DNA of 64,000 bases from Trichocoleus sp. FACHB-46. GTDB taxonomy: Bacteria; Cyanobacteriota; Cyanobacteriia; FACHB-46. The translations under genes and the position numbers were made by a program. Under the pieces are notes generated by a model. It ran no database searches, was not told the origin of the DNA, and saw only the letters and a program-made list of their open reading frames with translations. Every line of letters starts with the position of its first letter. Position 1 is the stretch's first letter. Positions 1,349 through 29,792 of this stretch are shown here, in pieces. The DNA lies in the NCBI RefSeq assembly GCF_014695385.1, contig NZ_JACJOD010000041.1, positions 62,001 through 126,000 on the forward strand, in the 5' to 3' direction.

Positions 1349-3619
1349 ATGCCTCGTTGGTTCCAATTCTGGCTCTCCCTCAGTGTCCTCACGATCACCA
1401 TTGCCGAAAATCTTGTCCTCCCTAGCTACCAGGCGATCGCTCAACTGCCCCCAGTCGCAGCCTGTAATTTGGAAGTGCCACGAGACAACGAAGTCTTGAC
1501 GCTTCTGGATCAAGCCCGCATTGAGTTAGACAACAAAAACATAGAAGCTGCAACTCGCTACTTGCAAGCAGCCTTCCCTAATGCCCTTCAACTGAGCAAT
1601 GCTCACAAAACGGAACTGATTCAGCAGTGGCTTTTAGATCCCTACGAAGGACATTCGATTTCACGGTTACAGCGGTTGATGCAGCAAGCGGAGATGCAAA
1701 AGTCATCGGCTTCCATGCGACCTCTGCTAGACCAGCTCTTGCAGCTCACCAATCGCCTCACCGCCAGCCATAGTTTCGTCAAAACTAGCGCTCTCGCCGC
1801 GATCGCCCATCATTATGTAACGCTGGGTCAACCTCAACAGGCAAAATTGGCACTCAGCCAAGCACAGCAGGCAGCCCGCTCGATTCAAGGCCCCATTTTT
1901 ACAGCCCAAGCCCTTACGGATGTATCAGCAGGCTATGCGACGCTGAGTTCAGGCAGTGCTGCCAGTAAAAACCAAGCCCAAACGGCTCAGGCAGTCTTAG
2001 CTCAAGTTGAGCAAGCGATGAAGCAGATTCCACCTAAAACGTCTGAGTCTTTGCAAGCCGCACTTTGGCCTCGATTAGCAGCCATCTACGCTCAGATTGG
2101 CGACTATGCGAAAGCCAATCAAGCCGTTGCTAGATTGCCTAAAAATTCTGAGTCCCAATCTTTTGCTCAGCGTGGCGTGGTAGAAGCTTACACTACCGCT
2201 CAAAACCTTAGCACCGCCGAACAACTGGCTCAAACGATCGCCACACCTGTCCAGAAAGGATTGGCTCTGGGAAAACTCGCCGTTGGTTATAGCCAAGCTA
2301 AACAACCTCAAAAAGCCACTCAACTGCTGCGTCAAGCGGTGCAACTCGCACAATCGCCCACGGTGGCACGCGATTCGATTGCCCAGGAAGCCTTGCTAAA
2401 AGCGCTTGTAGAATCCTATTTGCAAGTAGGACAGCGAGATGAAGCTTTCCAGTTAGCCAAAACTGCGCTGAAAGGGTCTCAGACTGAAGCTATTAGAGCT
2501 GTGGCGATCGCCTACGCCCAAGCTGGGCAAACCAACTCAGTGCGGCAACTCTTATCTGAGCGGCTCCGCACCATTCAAGCGATGCCGCCAAGTTGGGATC
2601 GGCAGTTGGTGTCACCGAGCTTGCTGCAGCTGGTGATGGATACGCAACAGTTTGACTGGGTTCGTCAGGAATGGCCTCGCCTTGCCGCCCTGGATTACGG
2701 TCTACAAGATGATCGGGTAGTAAAAATGGCCACTGCTTACGCCCAGTCAGGACAGCACCGTCAAGCCCTTCAGTGGGCGAAGCAGTTGCCCATCAGCGAT
2801 CGCCCTTTATTACAGGTTAAGCTAATGACCGCGATCGCCCGTGAGGCTCACCGTCAAGGTGAAACCCAATGGGCAAATGAATTACTCCAGCAAACTTTAC
2901 AAAGTCTCGACCCATTGCTGCGAGCCTACGACGAGCGAATTAAACGCGAAGGAGGCGATCTCCTCGAACGCGATCGCTTCAAACCCCAATCTTTAGCGCT
3001 GATTGCCCTCGTCTACGCTCAGAGCAACCAAGCAGAACCCACTCGCAGATTGCTTCAGCAAGTCAGCCAACTGGATGTCAATATGAGCGATCCAGCGATC
3101 GCACCTCCAGACCCCAATCCCTTCGCCCTCTTTATGGCAACCGAGCAATATGTCGGCGCTTTACAATTGGCTCAAGCGACTAAAAACCCAGAAATTCGGG
3201 TCGCCCGATTACAAGGCAGCGCTACTGCATTACTGAAACAGAATCGGTTTGATTTGGTGTTGCCAGTGGTAGATCAAATCACCGCTGCCGATCGCAAAAC
3301 TCAAATGCTGCTGGCGATCGCCCAACGCTACGGTGAACTTCAACAAGTAGACAAAGCCTTGCCAATTCTGGCGCAAGCCTTCCGTGTCGCCCAAACTATT
3401 CCTGGTGAGGAATCACGGGTGGATCGCTTCGGAACCGATGGCGCAACTGTCATGGAGGCATCCGATGACCGGGGCAGTATGCTAACGGCGATCGCAGTGC
3501 AGTATGCTCGCTTCCAGCAACCCACCCAAGCCCTGAAAGTTGCCAACACTTTGCAAGCCAAAGAAACTCGTGAGCAAGCCCTTCAAGCCGTAAAGTGTGC
3601 TTCTAGTCTCAAGGTTTGA
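1349..3619 (+). CDS. Secreted TPR-like helical repeat protein
   Basis: Protein of 756 residues. From the ATG at 1349 it begins MPRWFQFWLSLSVLTITIAE, a basic and then hydrophobic signal sequence with probable cleavage after AIAQ. The rest is a run of helix pairs of TPR or Sel1-like spacing, rich in Q, A and L, such as YAQIGDYAKANQAVARL, YSQAKQPQKATQLLRQAV and YAQSGQHRQALQWAKQL. It most likely acts as a periplasmic or lumenal protein-protein interaction scaffold. An upstream TTG at 1304 would add 15 residues and spoil the signal peptide. It begins 67 nt after mrp on the same strand. No enzymatic motif is visible and the specific function is unknown. Confidence 0.8.
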   Translation: MPRWFQFWLSLSVLTITIAENLVLPSYQAIAQLPPVAACNLEVPRDNEVLTLLDQARIELDNKNIEAATRYLQAAFPNALQLSNAHKTELIQQWLLDPYEGHSISRLQRLMQQAEMQKSSASMRPLLDQLLQLTNRLTASHSFVKTSALAAIAHHYVTLGQPQQAKLALSQAQQAARSIQGPIFTAQALTDVSAGYATLSSGSAASKNQAQTAQAVLAQVEQAMKQIPPKTSESLQAALWPRLAAIYAQIGDYAKANQAVARLPKNSESQSFAQRGVVEAYTTAQNLSTAEQLAQTIATPVQKGLALGKLAVGYSQAKQPQKATQLLRQAVQLAQSPTVARDSIAQEALLKALVESYLQVGQRDEAFQLAKTALKGSQTEAIRAVAIAYAQAGQTNSVRQLLSERLRTIQAMPPSWDRQLVSPSLLQLVMDTQQFDWVRQEWPRLAALDYGLQDDRVVKMATAYAQSGQHRQALQWAKQLPISDRPLLQVKLMTAIAREAHRQGETQWANELLQQTLQSLDPLLRAYDERIKREGGDLLERDRFKPQSLALIALVYAQSNQAEPTRRLLQQVSQLDVNMSDPAIAPPDPNPFALFMATEQYVGALQLAQATKNPEIRVARLQGSATALLKQNRFDLVLPVVDQITAADRKTQMLLAIAQRYGELQQVDKALPILAQAFRVAQTIPGEESRVDRFGTDGATVMEASDDRGSMLTAIAVQYARFQQPTQALKVANTLQAKETREQALQAVKCASSLKV

Positions 3620-13533: not shown

Positions 13534-14535
13534 ATGATTTTAGTAACCGGGGGAGCAGGGTATATTGGCTCCCATGCTGTTATGGAGTTACAACGAGCAG
13601 GTTATGAGGTGATGGTTTTAGATAACCTCTCTTATGGCCATCGGGAAATTGTTGAGGAAGTCTTACAAGTAAAACTAGTAGTAGGGGATATTAGCGATCG
13701 CGCCCTACTCGATCAACTATTCTCTACCTATCCTATTACCGCAGTTATGCACTTTGCGGCCTACATCGCTGTAGGTGAGTCTGTTACAGATCCCGCTAAG
13801 TATTACCGCAACAACGTTACAGGCACTCTAACGCTCTTGGAAGCGATGATCGCAGCGTCTGTAAAGCAGTTTGTGTTTTCTTCAACCTGTGCGCTGTATG
13901 GCATTCCTAAGTTTGTGCCAATCACAGAAGAGCATCCGCAAGACCCCATCAGTCCCTATGCCACCACAAAACAGACTGTGGAGCACATTCTCTCGGATTT
14001 TGATGTAGCTTATGGTCTGAAGTCAGTTCGCTTCCGGTACTTCAACGCGGCTGGAGCGCATCCCAATGGTCAACTCGGTGAGGACCATGCGCCTGAAACC
14101 CACTTAATTCCTCTTGTGTTGATGGCTGCCTTAGGTAAATTACCCGCCATCCAGATTCTAGGGACCGATTACCCTACACCAGATGGCACTTGCGTCCGTG
14201 ACTACATTCACGTCAGCGACCTGGCTCAAGCTCACGTTCAAGGATTGCAGTATCTGGAAAACGGTGGGGCCAGTGACGTGTTCAACTTGGGTAATGGCCT
14301 AGGATTCTCAGTCCGCGAAGTGATTGAAGCCGCTCGCGAAGTCACTGGCCGAGAAATTCCTGTAGTAGAGCGCGATCGCCGCCCTGGAGACCCTCCGGTT
14401 TTAGTAGGTAGCAGCGACAAAGCCAGCAATGTGTTGGGTTGGAAACCCGAATACGCTGACTTGAAACAAATTTTGACTCACGCTTGGCAATGGCACCAAC
14501 AACGGCACGGTCAGCATACGCCTGTGCCACAGTAG
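13534..14535 (+). CDS. galE: UDP-glucose 4-epimerase
   Basis: Protein of 333 residues, full length for GalE. The NAD-binding motif is VTGGAGYIGSHAVMELQRAG; FSSTCALYG and SPYATTKQTVEHIL give the catalytic Ser/Thr and the Tyr-x-x-x-Lys pair; RYFNAAGAHPNGQLGEDH and CVRDYIHVSDLAQAH are standard GalE blocks. It interconverts UDP-glucose and UDP-galactose in the cytoplasm, supplying Glf and closing the Leloir pathway with the downstream galT and galK. It is followed by two hairpins before a convergent cupin gene. Confidence 0.96.
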   Translation: MILVTGGAGYIGSHAVMELQRAGYEVMVLDNLSYGHREIVEEVLQVKLVVGDISDRALLDQLFSTYPITAVMHFAAYIAVGESVTDPAKYYRNNVTGTLTLLEAMIAASVKQFVFSSTCALYGIPKFVPITEEHPQDPISPYATTKQTVEHILSDFDVAYGLKSVRFRYFNAAGAHPNGQLGEDHAPETHLIPLVLMAALGKLPAIQILGTDYPTPDGTCVRDYIHVSDLAQAHVQGLQYLENGGASDVFNLGNGLGFSVREVIEAAREVTGREIPVVERDRRPGDPPVLVGSSDKASNVLGWKPEYADLKQILTHAWQWHQQRHGQHTPVPQ

Positions 14536-14598
14536 CCACAATGTGAAGCTTATGAAGCTTTGAAAGCAAGCTCAAGTCCTAGCAAGACCTAACCACCA

Positions 14599-14663
14599 GC
14601 CCCTCTCCACATCGGAGAGGGGCCTTAGTTCTATATGGCTCCCCTACCCTATCAGGGAAGGGG
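14599..14663. terminator. Double hairpin between convergent genes
   Basis: Two consecutive stem-loops: GCCCCTCTCC/GGAGAGGGGC (14599-14623, perfect 10-bp stem, 5-nt loop) and CCCCTACCCT/AGGGAAGGGG (14641-14663, one mismatch). The second is followed by GGGGTTAGGTCT, as at 7761-7781. They lie between galE and the minus-strand cupin gene and probably end transcription from both sides. Confidence 0.6.
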
Positions 14664-14686
14664 CTGGGGGTTAGGTCTCACAGTTT

Positions 14687-27881: not shown

Positions 27882-28023
27882 ACAAACCAGTAAAAATTTC
27901 AATTCAAATTCTAGCGATCGCCCTTCGACACGTTTCCAAATCTTGTGTTTGTCGAAATTCTGAATAAGCGCATAGACTGTGGGCTAGCGATATCTCTTTG
28001 TATCATGAGCTTAGTCAGCTAGC

Positions 28024-28109
28024 GCCTAGATTCACCGGTGCCGCATGATCAAACTGAGGTCATTAGGCAAGCTCCGCGGCGCAGTGTCGGGTGCAATCGC
28101 TAGTTAGAC
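28024..28109 (-). other. attC recombination site, distal, right core degenerate
   Basis: On the minus strand the left core is GTCTAAC (28109-28103), a perfect RYYYAAC. Inner boxes GATTGCACC (28098-28090) and GGTGAATC (28036-28029) pair except for one extra base at 28094, the extrahelical base that gives attC its polarity. The right core reads TCTAGGC (28030-28024) instead of GTTRRRY, two mismatches, so this outer crossover site has probably decayed. Confidence 0.72.
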
Positions 28110-28201
28110 GCTGTCTGGGGAACGGGCCAGCTTAACTCCGCCAAAGGTAAAGAACACGAGCGTTGGTTCGTTGGAACCGCGGTATGCATCCTGCGCATTG
28201 C

Positions 28202-28429
28202 TCAGCTTTGCAGCAATTGCAGTATTTGCCAGGCGTCTATTTCAGTTCCTTCCCAAACGGGCTTGGTAAGCTCAGCGATTGCATACTGCTTGCCGCATTT
28301 GCGAACTACCAACGCATCGTGACAAGAGTCTGGCACGGTGGACGGATTGTCCCATTGCCCACACCCATGTTTGGCTGCTCGTGTTGAAGGTTCCAACGGT
28401 CTGTGCTGGTTAATGCGCCTCAATGCCAT
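28202..28429 (-). CDS. Unrecognised cassette ORF (downstream of two)
   Basis: Protein of about 75 residues, second ORF of the distal cassette. It starts at ATG 28429, or at TTG 28435, and overlaps the end of the preceding ORF by about 20 nt. The sequence is MALRRINQHRPLEPSTRAAK, then CGQWDNPSTVPDSCHDALVV and KQYAIAELTKPVWEGTEIDA, ending WQILQLLQS. The C-terminal half looks like a compact beta-alpha domain. I do not recognise the family. The two ORFs could also be one gene split by a frameshift, since the overlap has no clear second ribosome binding site. Confidence 0.45.
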   Translation of the reverse strand: MALRRINQHRPLEPSTRAAKHGCGQWDNPSTVPDSCHDALVVRKCGKQYAIAELTKPVWEGTEIDAWQILQLLQS

Positions 28430-28571
28430 CCTCAAATTCGGAGATCAGCAAGCCAGTGTCCTGAGCAAAATGCCAAGCCTCCTCTGCACCGAAGCGCCAG
28501 ACCCTCTGGTGCCTAGACGTCTTGCTCCCCAGTTCATTCCATCTCAACTGTTTCAACTCTTCGTAAGTCAC
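28410..28571 (-). CDS. Unrecognised small cassette ORF
   Basis: First ORF of the distal cassette, 53 residues if read from the GTG at 28571, which is preceded by AGGAGA at a good spacing. The frame is open from a TTG at 28595. It encodes TYEELKQLRWNELGSKTSRH, then QRVWRFGAEEAWHFAQDTGL and LISEFEDGIEAH, an acidic, Trp-rich, soluble protein. Small paired ORFs in cassettes are often toxin-antitoxin or unknown; nothing here identifies a toxin family. Confidence 0.45.
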   Translation of the reverse strand: MTYEELKQLRWNELGSKTSRHQRVWRFGAEEAWHFAQDTGLLISEFEDGIEAH

Positions 28572-28608
28572 GGTGTCTCCTAACTCAGCTATCAACTTGC
28601 GGTGAGGT

Positions 28609-28689
28609 GCCTAACGCCCGGCATCACCCGCCCGCGCAACATACGTGAGAGGCATTGTGATACGAGTCGGGTGCATGTGGTTGTTATGC
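28609..28689 (-). other. attC recombination site between the two cassettes
   Basis: Read on the minus strand: left core GCATAAC (28689-28683), right core GTTAGGC (28615-28609), a perfect GTTRRRY with crossover after the G at 28615. The inner boxes CATGCACCCG (28677-28668) and CGGGTGATG (28630-28622) pair along their length except for one extra G at 28674. An unpaired extra base in the left inner box is the hallmark of attC and gives the same orientation as the ORFs. Total 81 nt, within the known size range. Confidence 0.82.
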
Positions 28690-28731
28690 CTCGCCGTAGG
28701 GGATTACCGCCCCCGGTAAACGCTCCTCCGC

Positions 28732-29001
28732 CTAGACTTCGCCTTGGCTCAGGGTTGAATGGTGGATGACCCAATACAGGCCGGCCACGAAGACACCACC
28801 GAGCAGGGTGGCGAACACCCACACCATCGGTCCCACCAGAGCCGTCCTACGTCTGCGGCGCTGAAGTACACCGACATCGTGGCCAACTCCGACTGCGAAC
28901 AGGACGTTGAGTCCGACTGCGAACAGGACGTTGAGGATGACGTGCAGCAACATCACCGGTGTGGCTAGCGCCGAAAATAACTCCCAGCTTTCAGTGTCCA
29001 T
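28732..29001 (-). CDS. Small two-helix membrane protein, cassette-borne
   Basis: Protein of 89 residues, [20 protein letters not shown] onward. Two hydrophobic segments are seen: [19 protein letters not shown] (extended by a duplication) and [20 protein letters not shown], joined by a basic loop [11 protein letters not shown]. The ATG at 29001 follows GGAGG by three bases, and that ribosome binding site lies about 25 nt inside the cassette edge, as is typical. A 24-bp tandem duplication (28888-28911 and 28912-28935) repeats eight residues in frame within the first helix. The sequence is clearly more GC-rich than its flanks. No family recognised. Confidence 0.6.
28888..28935. repeat. 24-bp perfect tandem duplication
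   Basis: Two identical adjacent 24-bp units (28888-28911, 28912-28935) inside the cassette membrane-protein gene. They are in frame and double the segment LNVLFAVG, lengthening the first transmembrane helix. Confidence 0.9.
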
Positions 29002-29110
29002 ATTCCTCCACAAAATACAAAAAAGGCATAACTATTACTAGGTGTACTTTTTCACCTAAGATCTCCTATGAGGTGATCAGATGACCTGTCTCTCCATAAT
29101 TAGCTTTTGA

Positions 29111-29144
29111 GGTTATTATGCGGAAAGTTTTCCGCATAATAACC
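29111..29144. repeat. Perfect 34-nt palindrome
   Basis: GGTTATTATGCGGAAA (29111-29126) and its exact complement (29129-29144) flank a two-base centre. The 16-bp arms resemble a tyrosine-recombinase core or a transposon end remnant. There is no T-run directly after it, so a simple terminator is less likely. Confidence 0.75.
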
Positions 29145-29165
29145 CTGAACAGTACGCTTCGGTAG

Positions 29166-29193
29166 AAAGGCGAAGTAAATGTTTCGCCTTTTT
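29166..29193 (+). terminator. Intrinsic terminator-like hairpin
   Basis: AAAGGCGAA (29166-29174) pairs with TTCGCCTTT (29183-29191) around an 8-nt loop, ending in a T-run on the plus strand. No plus-strand gene lies directly upstream, so it may be a leftover of a gene displaced by the cassette insertion. Confidence 0.55.
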
Positions 29194-29387
29194 AGCTCCT
29201 GAACTCAGCCTAAGATCCCATAACAGCTAATTAGCCTGACTCGAGGAGAAATTTGTGGAGTAATAGGATAAAAATCAAGTGATTATATTCAAGTTAAGGC
29301 ATAGAGCGATCGCCCTTCCAACCACAAAACTCACCACTCTTGACTAGCAAGTCAAGTGTTGTAGCTAACAGCAGGAGTGCTTTAGTT

Positions 29388-29792
29388 CTAACCTTGACTT
29401 TGCAGAGCTTGCAGCTTGGCTCGAACTGTTTCAATGCGTTTGCGGTTAACCCCTAAATCCGATTTGCCCAAGCGCGAGGCCGATCGCACGTGAATCACTT
29501 GCTGAACTTCATCCAGGTAAAATTCCACGTCATCCACATAGCCCATCAAAGCGCTTTTGAATTCTGCGTACAAGTAGTTAGGCCTTTCCGTAACGATGGT
29601 TGTACGCTCCAGATTTTGGATCACCGTTTTGAGGTCAGCGATCGCTTGGGTTGCTGTGGAGGTGTAAGTCAAAGGGGCAATCTGACAAGTTGGGCTTGTA
29701 CTTTGGCTATTGACACAGTTAGGGGTATTTGGGCAGGGTGCTAAGCTACCATTTTGAACGCCAAGATTAGTGGGCCGTTTGCCAGCAAACAC
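29388..29792 (-). CDS. DUF1499 domain protein
   Basis: Protein of 134 residues. It has the family blocks LAPCPNTPNCVNSQS near the N-terminus, RTTIVTERPNYLYAEFKSAL in the middle and VEFYLDEVQQVIHVRSASRL followed by GKSDLGVNRKRIETVRAKL at the end. DUF1499 proteins are small, widespread in cyanobacteria and plants, and of unknown function. The GTG start at 29792 is preceded by GGAGGAAG at suitable spacing. No clear signal peptide is seen from this start. Confidence 0.88.
   Translation of the reverse strand: MFAGKRPTNLGVQNGSLAPCPNTPNCVNSQSTSPTCQIAPLTYTSTATQAIADLKTVIQNLERTTIVTERPNYLYAEFKSALMGYVDDVEFYLDEVQQVIHVRSASRLGKSDLGVNRKRIETVRAKLQALQSQG

What the first reader, a model, noticed from the sequence alone, without database searches (positions are those of the whole stretch)
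28024..29032. Integrase-less integron cassette array (CALIN) in a cyanobacterial chromosome
Two attC-type sites lie 500 bp apart in the same orientation, each at the 3' end of a minus-strand ORF set, in a region lacking HIP1 octamers. No integrase is in the window. Seen: core sites, paired inner boxes, extra base, matching orientation of ORFs. Known: cassettes end in attC and CALINs are arrays without IntI. Inferred: cassettes were brought in by an integrase elsewhere or since lost. Cassette arrays outside proteobacteria are less well documented.
Basis: partly seen in the sequence, partly recalled or inferred. Interest (0 to 1): 0.88.

Follow-up and report, generated by a model that had tools for sequence, protein, structure and literature searches.

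The report
Headless integron with its landing site
In this cyanobacterium a gene-capturing element (an integron) has lost its recombinase gene but kept its landing site and two captured genes, and related landing sites, often without a recombinase beside them, turn up in about 40% of the cyanobacterial genomes sampled.

Summary
Window 28019-29031 (minus strand) holds two integron cassettes. Site A (28609-28689) is the best attC hit in the whole genome (35.8 bits, model trained without it). Site B (about 28012-28108) is degenerate and credible only by position. No integrase lies in the window.

Upstream of cassette 1 is an attI site (29032 to about 29313). A sequence model built from four integrase-less copies recovers attI beside full-length IntI genes in other cyanobacteria, ending at the same G|TTRRRY junction. 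Cassette 1's first bases (GTTATGC) pair perfectly with R'' of its own attC (GCATAAC), the hallmark of a captured cassette. So this is most likely a decapitated integron, not cassettes dropped at a random site. The genome's only recognisable intI is a 96-codon fragment on another contig.

The pattern is widespread: 153 of 390 cyanobacterial genomes carry this attI. At 40 such sites with no listed IntI beside them, 29 of 30 attC hits lie downstream in the right orientation; ten keep only an N-terminal IntI stub.

Integrons and CALINs in cyanobacteria are already known. Recognising attI heading integrase-less arrays at scale appears new and makes the origin of CALINs testable.

The parts
29026..29313 (-). 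attI-type element with no integrase gene; insertion point G29032|T29031, reading GTTATGC on the minus strand
   Evidence: R1 hit 29026-29149, 100 bits (training copy). BLAST similarity to copies in G002 (29024-29264) and G001 (29031-29313). The same model, trained only on intI-less copies, finds attI beside intI in G000:C81, G002:C42, Kovacikia pB and 14 further full-length IntI loci.
28615..29031 (-). gene cassette 1 (417 bp)
   Evidence: Bounded by the attI junction and by G28615|T28614 of attC A. Its first bases with the junction G (GTTATGC) are the exact complement of R'' of attC A (GCATAAC).
28732..29013 (-). cassette 1 ORF, 93 aa, membrane-type protein of unknown family
   Evidence: ORF; no Pfam family over its cut-off; found in 1 of 390 cyanobacterial genomes, its own
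28609..28689 (-). attC site A, 3' end of cassette 1
   Evidence: R2 35.8 bits; best attC hit in the genome; not in the training set
28019..28614 (-). gene cassette 2 (about 596 bp; distal end inferred)
   Evidence: Starts TTAGGC at G28615|T28614. R'' of site B (GTCTAAC) pairs with GTTAGGC at 7 of 7 positions, one of them G-T (read from the sequence). Distal end inferred at G28019|C28018.
28202..28595 (-). probable remains of a DUF6882 gene in cassette 2, split between two overlapping frames (ORFs 28410-28595 and 28202-28435)
   Evidence: ORFs; PF21813 25.8 bits against cut-off 23.9 in the downstream ORF, C-terminal part only; the upstream ORF has no Pfam hit
28012..28108 (-). attC site B, degenerate: R'' 28102-28108 good, L' arm with 5-nt insertion, R' G|CTGACT
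   Evidence: R2 18.1 bits, E = 8 genome-wide; manual reading of the sequence; fold

Best explanation
The region is a degraded (decapitated) chromosomal integron: attI, cassette 1, attC A, cassette 2, attC B, with the integrase gene gone. An IntI-type recombinase once joined the folded bottom strand of each circular cassette's attC to the double-stranded attI at G29032|T29031, cassette 2 first and cassette 1 later, because the attI-proximal cassette is normally the newest. intI, which in intact relatives lies divergently about 200-350 bp on the other side of attI, was then deleted. The array is now frozen: the genome keeps only a 96-codon intI fragment on another contig, cassette 2's gene looks broken and site B is damaged. 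Shown here: attI homology and junction, cassette boundaries, attC A, absence of intI, signs of decay. Inferred: order of capture, former presence and time of loss of intI, present inactivity.
For: (1) Site A is the best attC hit in the genome, in the right orientation. (2) The R1 model from four intI-less elements recovers intI-adjacent attI in G002:C42 (E 7.7e-6) and G000:C81 (E 3.7e-4), in Kovacikia minuta pB and beside 14 full-length IntI in other genera at -195 to -365 from the IntI match. (3) In 17 aligned copies conservation stops at G|TTRRRY. (4) The bases after the attI junction pair with R'' of the first downstream attC: full 4/4 in 19 of 33 loci, permuted mean 2.6, maximum 9 in 10,000; the window scores 4/4. 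(5) At 40 attI sites chosen away from any listed IntI, 29 attC hits lie downstream on the same strand against 1 in the three other quadrants. (6) Ten of those 40 keep only an N-terminal IntI stub directly beside attI, as does G002:C1, so intI is being eroded while attI stays. (7) At the orthologous locus the sister species G002 keeps an attI remnant in the same orientation (alignment score 43, shuffle maximum 30). (8) The cassette 2 gene is split between frames.
Against: No intI remnant survives at the window's own attI, so intI may never have been there. Site B is not significant alone. Fold energies of A and B do not exceed shuffles. No sigma-70-like promoter was found in the attI region. 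IntegronFinder's own attC model could not be run. The sister species have unrelated DNA at this locus, so there is no clean empty site.
Confidence: 0.74

Rival explanations
1. The attI elements are dispersed landing sites in their own right. An integrase encoded elsewhere in the genome, now or in the past, filled them with cassettes in trans, and the window's attI never had a neighbouring intI.
For: Each of the three genomes has 3-7 attI-like copies but at most two recognisable intI genes or remnants. 29 of 40 attI sites elsewhere show no IntI trace at all. The window, G002:C10 and G001:2944k copies share about 290 bp that runs past where intI would start, at non-orthologous places.
Against: Ten of 40 intI-less sites, and G002:C1, retain an N-terminal IntI stub exactly where intI should start, which points to loss. 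Orthologous attI loci shared by the species in different states of decay also fit old integrons falling apart. No example of cassette gain at an intI-less attI was dated here.
Confidence: 0.18
2. An ordinary CALIN made by off-target insertion of cassettes at a chromosomal attG site by an integrase in trans (one of the two routes the first reader offered).
For: No intI nearby; attG insertion of cassettes is an established route (Loot et al. 2024, cited in PMC12901181).
Against: The insertion point is a member of an attI family that also sits beside full-length intI genes, not an unrelated genomic site.
Confidence: 0.05
3. The upstream element is a generic cyanobacterial intergenic repeat (MITE-like), and its junction with cassettes is fortuitous or a hotspot unrelated to IntI.
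For: It is multicopy (up to 8 scored hits per genome) and contains a perfect palindrome. The promoter scan gives no function.
Against: Fixed position and direction relative to intI, conservation ending at the recombination base, cassettes only on one side and one strand, and the R'' to cassette-start complementarity.
Confidence: 0.03

Closest known systems
[quoted passage not shown] Cury et al., reviewed in PMC8618304)
   Same: attC-delimited cassettes, one orientation, no intI nearby; degraded integrons are one of the proposed origins of CALINs (PMC8618304, PMC9024848)
   Different: This array is headed by a recognisable attI site, which the CALIN definition neither requires nor reports; IntegronFinder does not look for attI outside class 1 integrons (PMC9024848). 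The second attC is degenerate, so a tool requiring two attC sites might not call it.
Integrons of cyanobacteria (e.g. Kovacikia minuta plasmid pB; G002:C42)
   Same: Same attI family, same divergent intI-attI layout, same attC architecture
   Different: The intI gene is absent here and the genome's only intI trace is a 96-codon fragment
Xanthomonas integrons that have lost intI (PMC12444791), such as the two-cassette CALIN of X. citri pv. citri
   Same: Short two-cassette array surviving intI loss, with integrase decay across a genus
   Different: Different phylum. There one platform locus (ilvD) dominates; here each genome has several attI-headed loci.
attG-mediated cassette insertion (Loot et al. 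2024, cited in PMC12901181)
   Same: Cassettes found away from any integrase
   Different: The insertion site here is attI-like, not a divergent genomic site

Membership tests
[quoted passage not shown]
   Site A 35.8 bits; site B 18.1 bits, E = 8 genome-wide, accepted only by position. IntegronFinder's model not available.
CALIN | No intI near the cluster | tested here: met
   No TIGR02249 or PF00589 hit on contig C41; no IntI similarity in the 10 kb around the site
Integron (complete) | Functional intI gene adjacent to attI | tested here: not met
   Absent; the only trace in the genome is a 96-codon N-terminal fragment at C81
Integron (complete) | attI site with G|TTRRRY insertion point | tested here: met
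   Homology to intI-adjacent attI; junction GTTATGC with one departure from the RRR consensus
Integron (complete) | Cassette promoter Pc in or near attI | tested here: inconclusive
   No sigma-70 consensus match at 28900-29400; expression not testable
Gene cassette | R'' of its attC is complementary to the cassette's own first bases | tested here: met
   Cassette 1: GCATAAC with GTTATGC, perfect. Cassette 2: 7 of 7 with one G-T, read from the sequence.
Gene cassette | attC orientation matches the ORF, extra base in L'' | tested here: met
   R2 scores the minus strand 35.8 bits with no plus-strand call; extra G on the L'' side read from the sequence
attG insertion | Insertion at a genomic site that is neither attI nor attC | tested here: not met
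   Insertion site belongs to the attI family
Any integron-derived element | Recombination activity with an IntI | not testable with these tools
   Needs a recombination assay

The most novel reading that the evidence does not exclude
Cyanobacterial chromosomes carry a dispersed network of stand-alone attI sites, kept independently of intI, into which cassettes are delivered in trans whenever an integrase is present or arrives, so that attI, not the intI-attI pair, is the lasting unit of the integron.
Probability: 0.18. Interest if true: 0.8.

Novelty: new variant of a known kind. Interest (0 to 1): 0.55.

Why it matters
Integrase-less cassette clusters are more abundant and more widely spread than complete integrons (PMC9668308), and three origins have been proposed: off-target insertion, loss of intI, and rearrangement (PMC8618304). 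They are hard to tell apart when attI is not recognised, and current software does not look for attI outside class 1 (PMC9024848). A sequence model that finds attI in cyanobacteria lets each cluster be sorted: attI present points to a former or trans-served integron, attI absent to off-target insertion or rearrangement. Here that test points to a decapitated integron in the window and to many like it across the class.

Tried and rejected
Rfam gave nothing relevant. An unfiltered R2 search scored site A lower, apparently because it cannot span the long loop, so it was not used. Folding energy of the sites is uninformative. HIP1 absence is not special. A clean empty site in sister species was sought and not found: G002 and G001 have other DNA between the same flanking genes. 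R1 found no attI in the sister-species orthologues at E<=10; only a direct alignment test found the remnant in G002. Weak alignment scores at some other orthologous gaps (1-2 of 100 shuffles as good) were not claimed. The genus could not be named: the genome-contig scan leaves out near records. Cassette 2's fragment has no plasmid match. The simple R-box scan alone gives many false hits (14 in the window), so the claims rest on the covariance model, position and pairing tests.

Full report
WHAT WAS CLAIMED. Two attC sites about 500 bp apart on the minus strand near 28024-29032, read as an integrase-less cassette array (CALIN) in a cyanobacterial chromosome.

CHECK OF THE OBSERVATION. I built an attC covariance model (R2) from 16 attC sites: six from class 1 integrons on plasmids and ten from cyanobacteria, none from the window. 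Over the whole 6.56-Mb genome the best hit is window 28609-28689 on the minus strand, 35.8 bits, E 7.1e-4 (searches agree). The left-hand site scores 18.1 bits at 28017-28109, E = 8 for the genome. Its R'' box GTCTAAC is good, but its L' arm has a 5-nt insertion and the cleavage-side R' box is degenerate. I accept it by position, as a damaged attC. Neither site folds better than shuffles as single-stranded DNA. There is no integrase on the window's contig. The HIP1-free stretch exists but is only the sixth longest of 131 gaps.

In the minus-strand direction, cassette 1 begins right after AATAG|TTATGC at 29032/29031. The roughly 280 bp before it recur at other places in the two sister genomes. 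A sequence-only model (R1) built from four such intI-less copies hits the intI-adjacent attI region of G002:C42 (E 7.7e-6) and G000:C81 (E 3.7e-4), ending at the cassette junction, as well as the region upstream of the Kovacikia minuta pB integron integrase. Seventeen copies (16 in the three sister genomes, one in Kovacikia) align up to AATAGTT and then diverge at once. That is what attI sites with different first cassettes look like.

CASSETTE BOUNDARIES. In a genuine cassette, R'' of its attC pairs with the cassette's own first bases. In the window, R'' GCATAAC of site A is the exact complement of GTTATGC at 29032-29026, although the R' now next to it, GTTAGGC, belongs to cassette 2. Across 33 loci, the four variable positions pair fully in 19 cases, against a permuted mean of 2.6 and a maximum of 9 in 10,000 permutations; the R' found in place pairs fully in only 7. 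This ties attI junction and attC together as one recombination product.

THE WINDOW ARRAY. attI (29026 to about 29313); cassette 1 (28615-29031) with a 93-aa membrane-type ORF found in no other sampled cyanobacterium; attC A; cassette 2 (about 28019-28614) with what looks like a DUF6882 gene split between two frames; attC B, damaged. No IntI similarity lies within the 10 kb around the attI.

WHERE THE INTEGRASE WENT. The own genome has one recognisable intI trace: a 96-codon fragment (TIGR02249 positions 1-79, 93.5 bits) on contig C81, with attI, a cassette carrying an acetyltransferase-like ORF and more attC sites beside it. Sister G002 has an intI of 362 bits whose N-terminal end looks disrupted, plus an N-terminal stub at C1 beside an attI that heads at least six attC sites. 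Sister G001, a closed genome, has none over E 1e-30. At the window's locus G001 and G002 carry other genes between the same flanks, but G002 keeps an attI-like remnant in the same orientation (alignment score 43; shuffles at most 30). Other attI loci are orthologous between the species and in different states of decay.

HOW GENERAL. IntI exceeds the curated cut-off in 125 of 390 cyanobacterial genomes. The attI model hits 153 of 390 genomes in 68 of 160 genera at E<=1e-3; 57 of them have no IntI hit at E<=1e-30. I examined 15 hits that lie beside a listed intI: 14 sit 195-365 bp from the start of the IntI match and end at or within a few bases of the junction; in the other the hit stops short of the junction and lies differently. 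I then examined 40 hits from 40 genomes that are not beside a listed IntI, 3 kb on each side. Of attC hits at 20 bits or more, 29 lie downstream on the same strand, none downstream on the opposite strand, one upstream on the same strand and none upstream opposite; 23 of 40 loci are positive. Ten of the 40 keep only an N-terminal IntI stub directly beside attI, one has a fragment 2 kb away, 29 have nothing; at two loci (L256, L273) the contig starts too close to tell.

INTERPRETATION. Loss of intI from an attI-headed integron explains the window best: attI, two cassettes and decay are all there, and stubs elsewhere show intI being eroded while attI stays. The main rival is that attI sites stand alone and are filled in trans; most intI-less sites show no stub and the window's subfamily shares sequence past the intI start, so I give it about 0.18.

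KNOWN VERSUS NEW. Cyanobacterial integrons, CALINs, intI pseudogenes and degraded integrons are known (PMC8618304, PMC9668308, PMC8352920, PMC2426708, PMC9024848, PMC12444791). I found no paper in the searched library that identifies attI in cyanobacteria or uses it to sort integrase-less arrays; that library holds only open-licence papers. IntegronFinder 2.0 states that attI is poorly described outside class 1 (PMC9024848). The single locus is ordinary in kind; the attI-headed class is the new part.

LIMITS. R1 and R2 are small models with rough E-values. The 40 loci were chosen from the better R1 hits that reach the junction, so 23 of 40 is not a rate for all hits. Draft contigs may hide intI. 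No activity was tested.

Noticed in passing
window 28888-28935: Exact 24-bp tandem duplication inside the cassette 1 ORF (NVLFAVG repeated).
   Followed up: no
window 29111-29144: Perfect 16-bp palindrome (TTATGCGGAAA / TTTCCGCATAA) inside the attI element; intI-adjacent attI regions of relatives carry the same motifs as degenerate repeats about 40 bp apart. Possible integrase or regulator binding sites.
   Followed up: partly
window 14587-14676: Strong symmetric 90-nt hairpin ACCTAACC...GGTTAGGT that mimics attC R boxes in a simple scan but is not scored by the attC model.
   Followed up: no
L167 (G000:C50) 2133-3004: An intI-type attI copy lies about 200 bp downstream of a ~190-aa tyrosine recombinase on a small contig; several such short recombinases exist in this genome.
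   Followed up: no
window 27991-29304 and orthologues L058, L059: The interval between the erythromycin-esterase-family gene and the DUF1499 gene is a variable hotspot: cassettes here, a different ORF in G002, about 7 kb of signalling-type genes in G001.
   Followed up: partly
G000 contigs C19, C60, C49, C53; G002 C68, C33, C83: Further attC hits without a detectable attI in the same genus; candidates for true off-target insertions or more diverged attI.
   Followed up: partly
L074 (G002:C42) about 14330-14420: The only large intI of the genus looks frame-disrupted near its N-terminus, so none of the three genomes may have a working integrase.
   Followed up: partly
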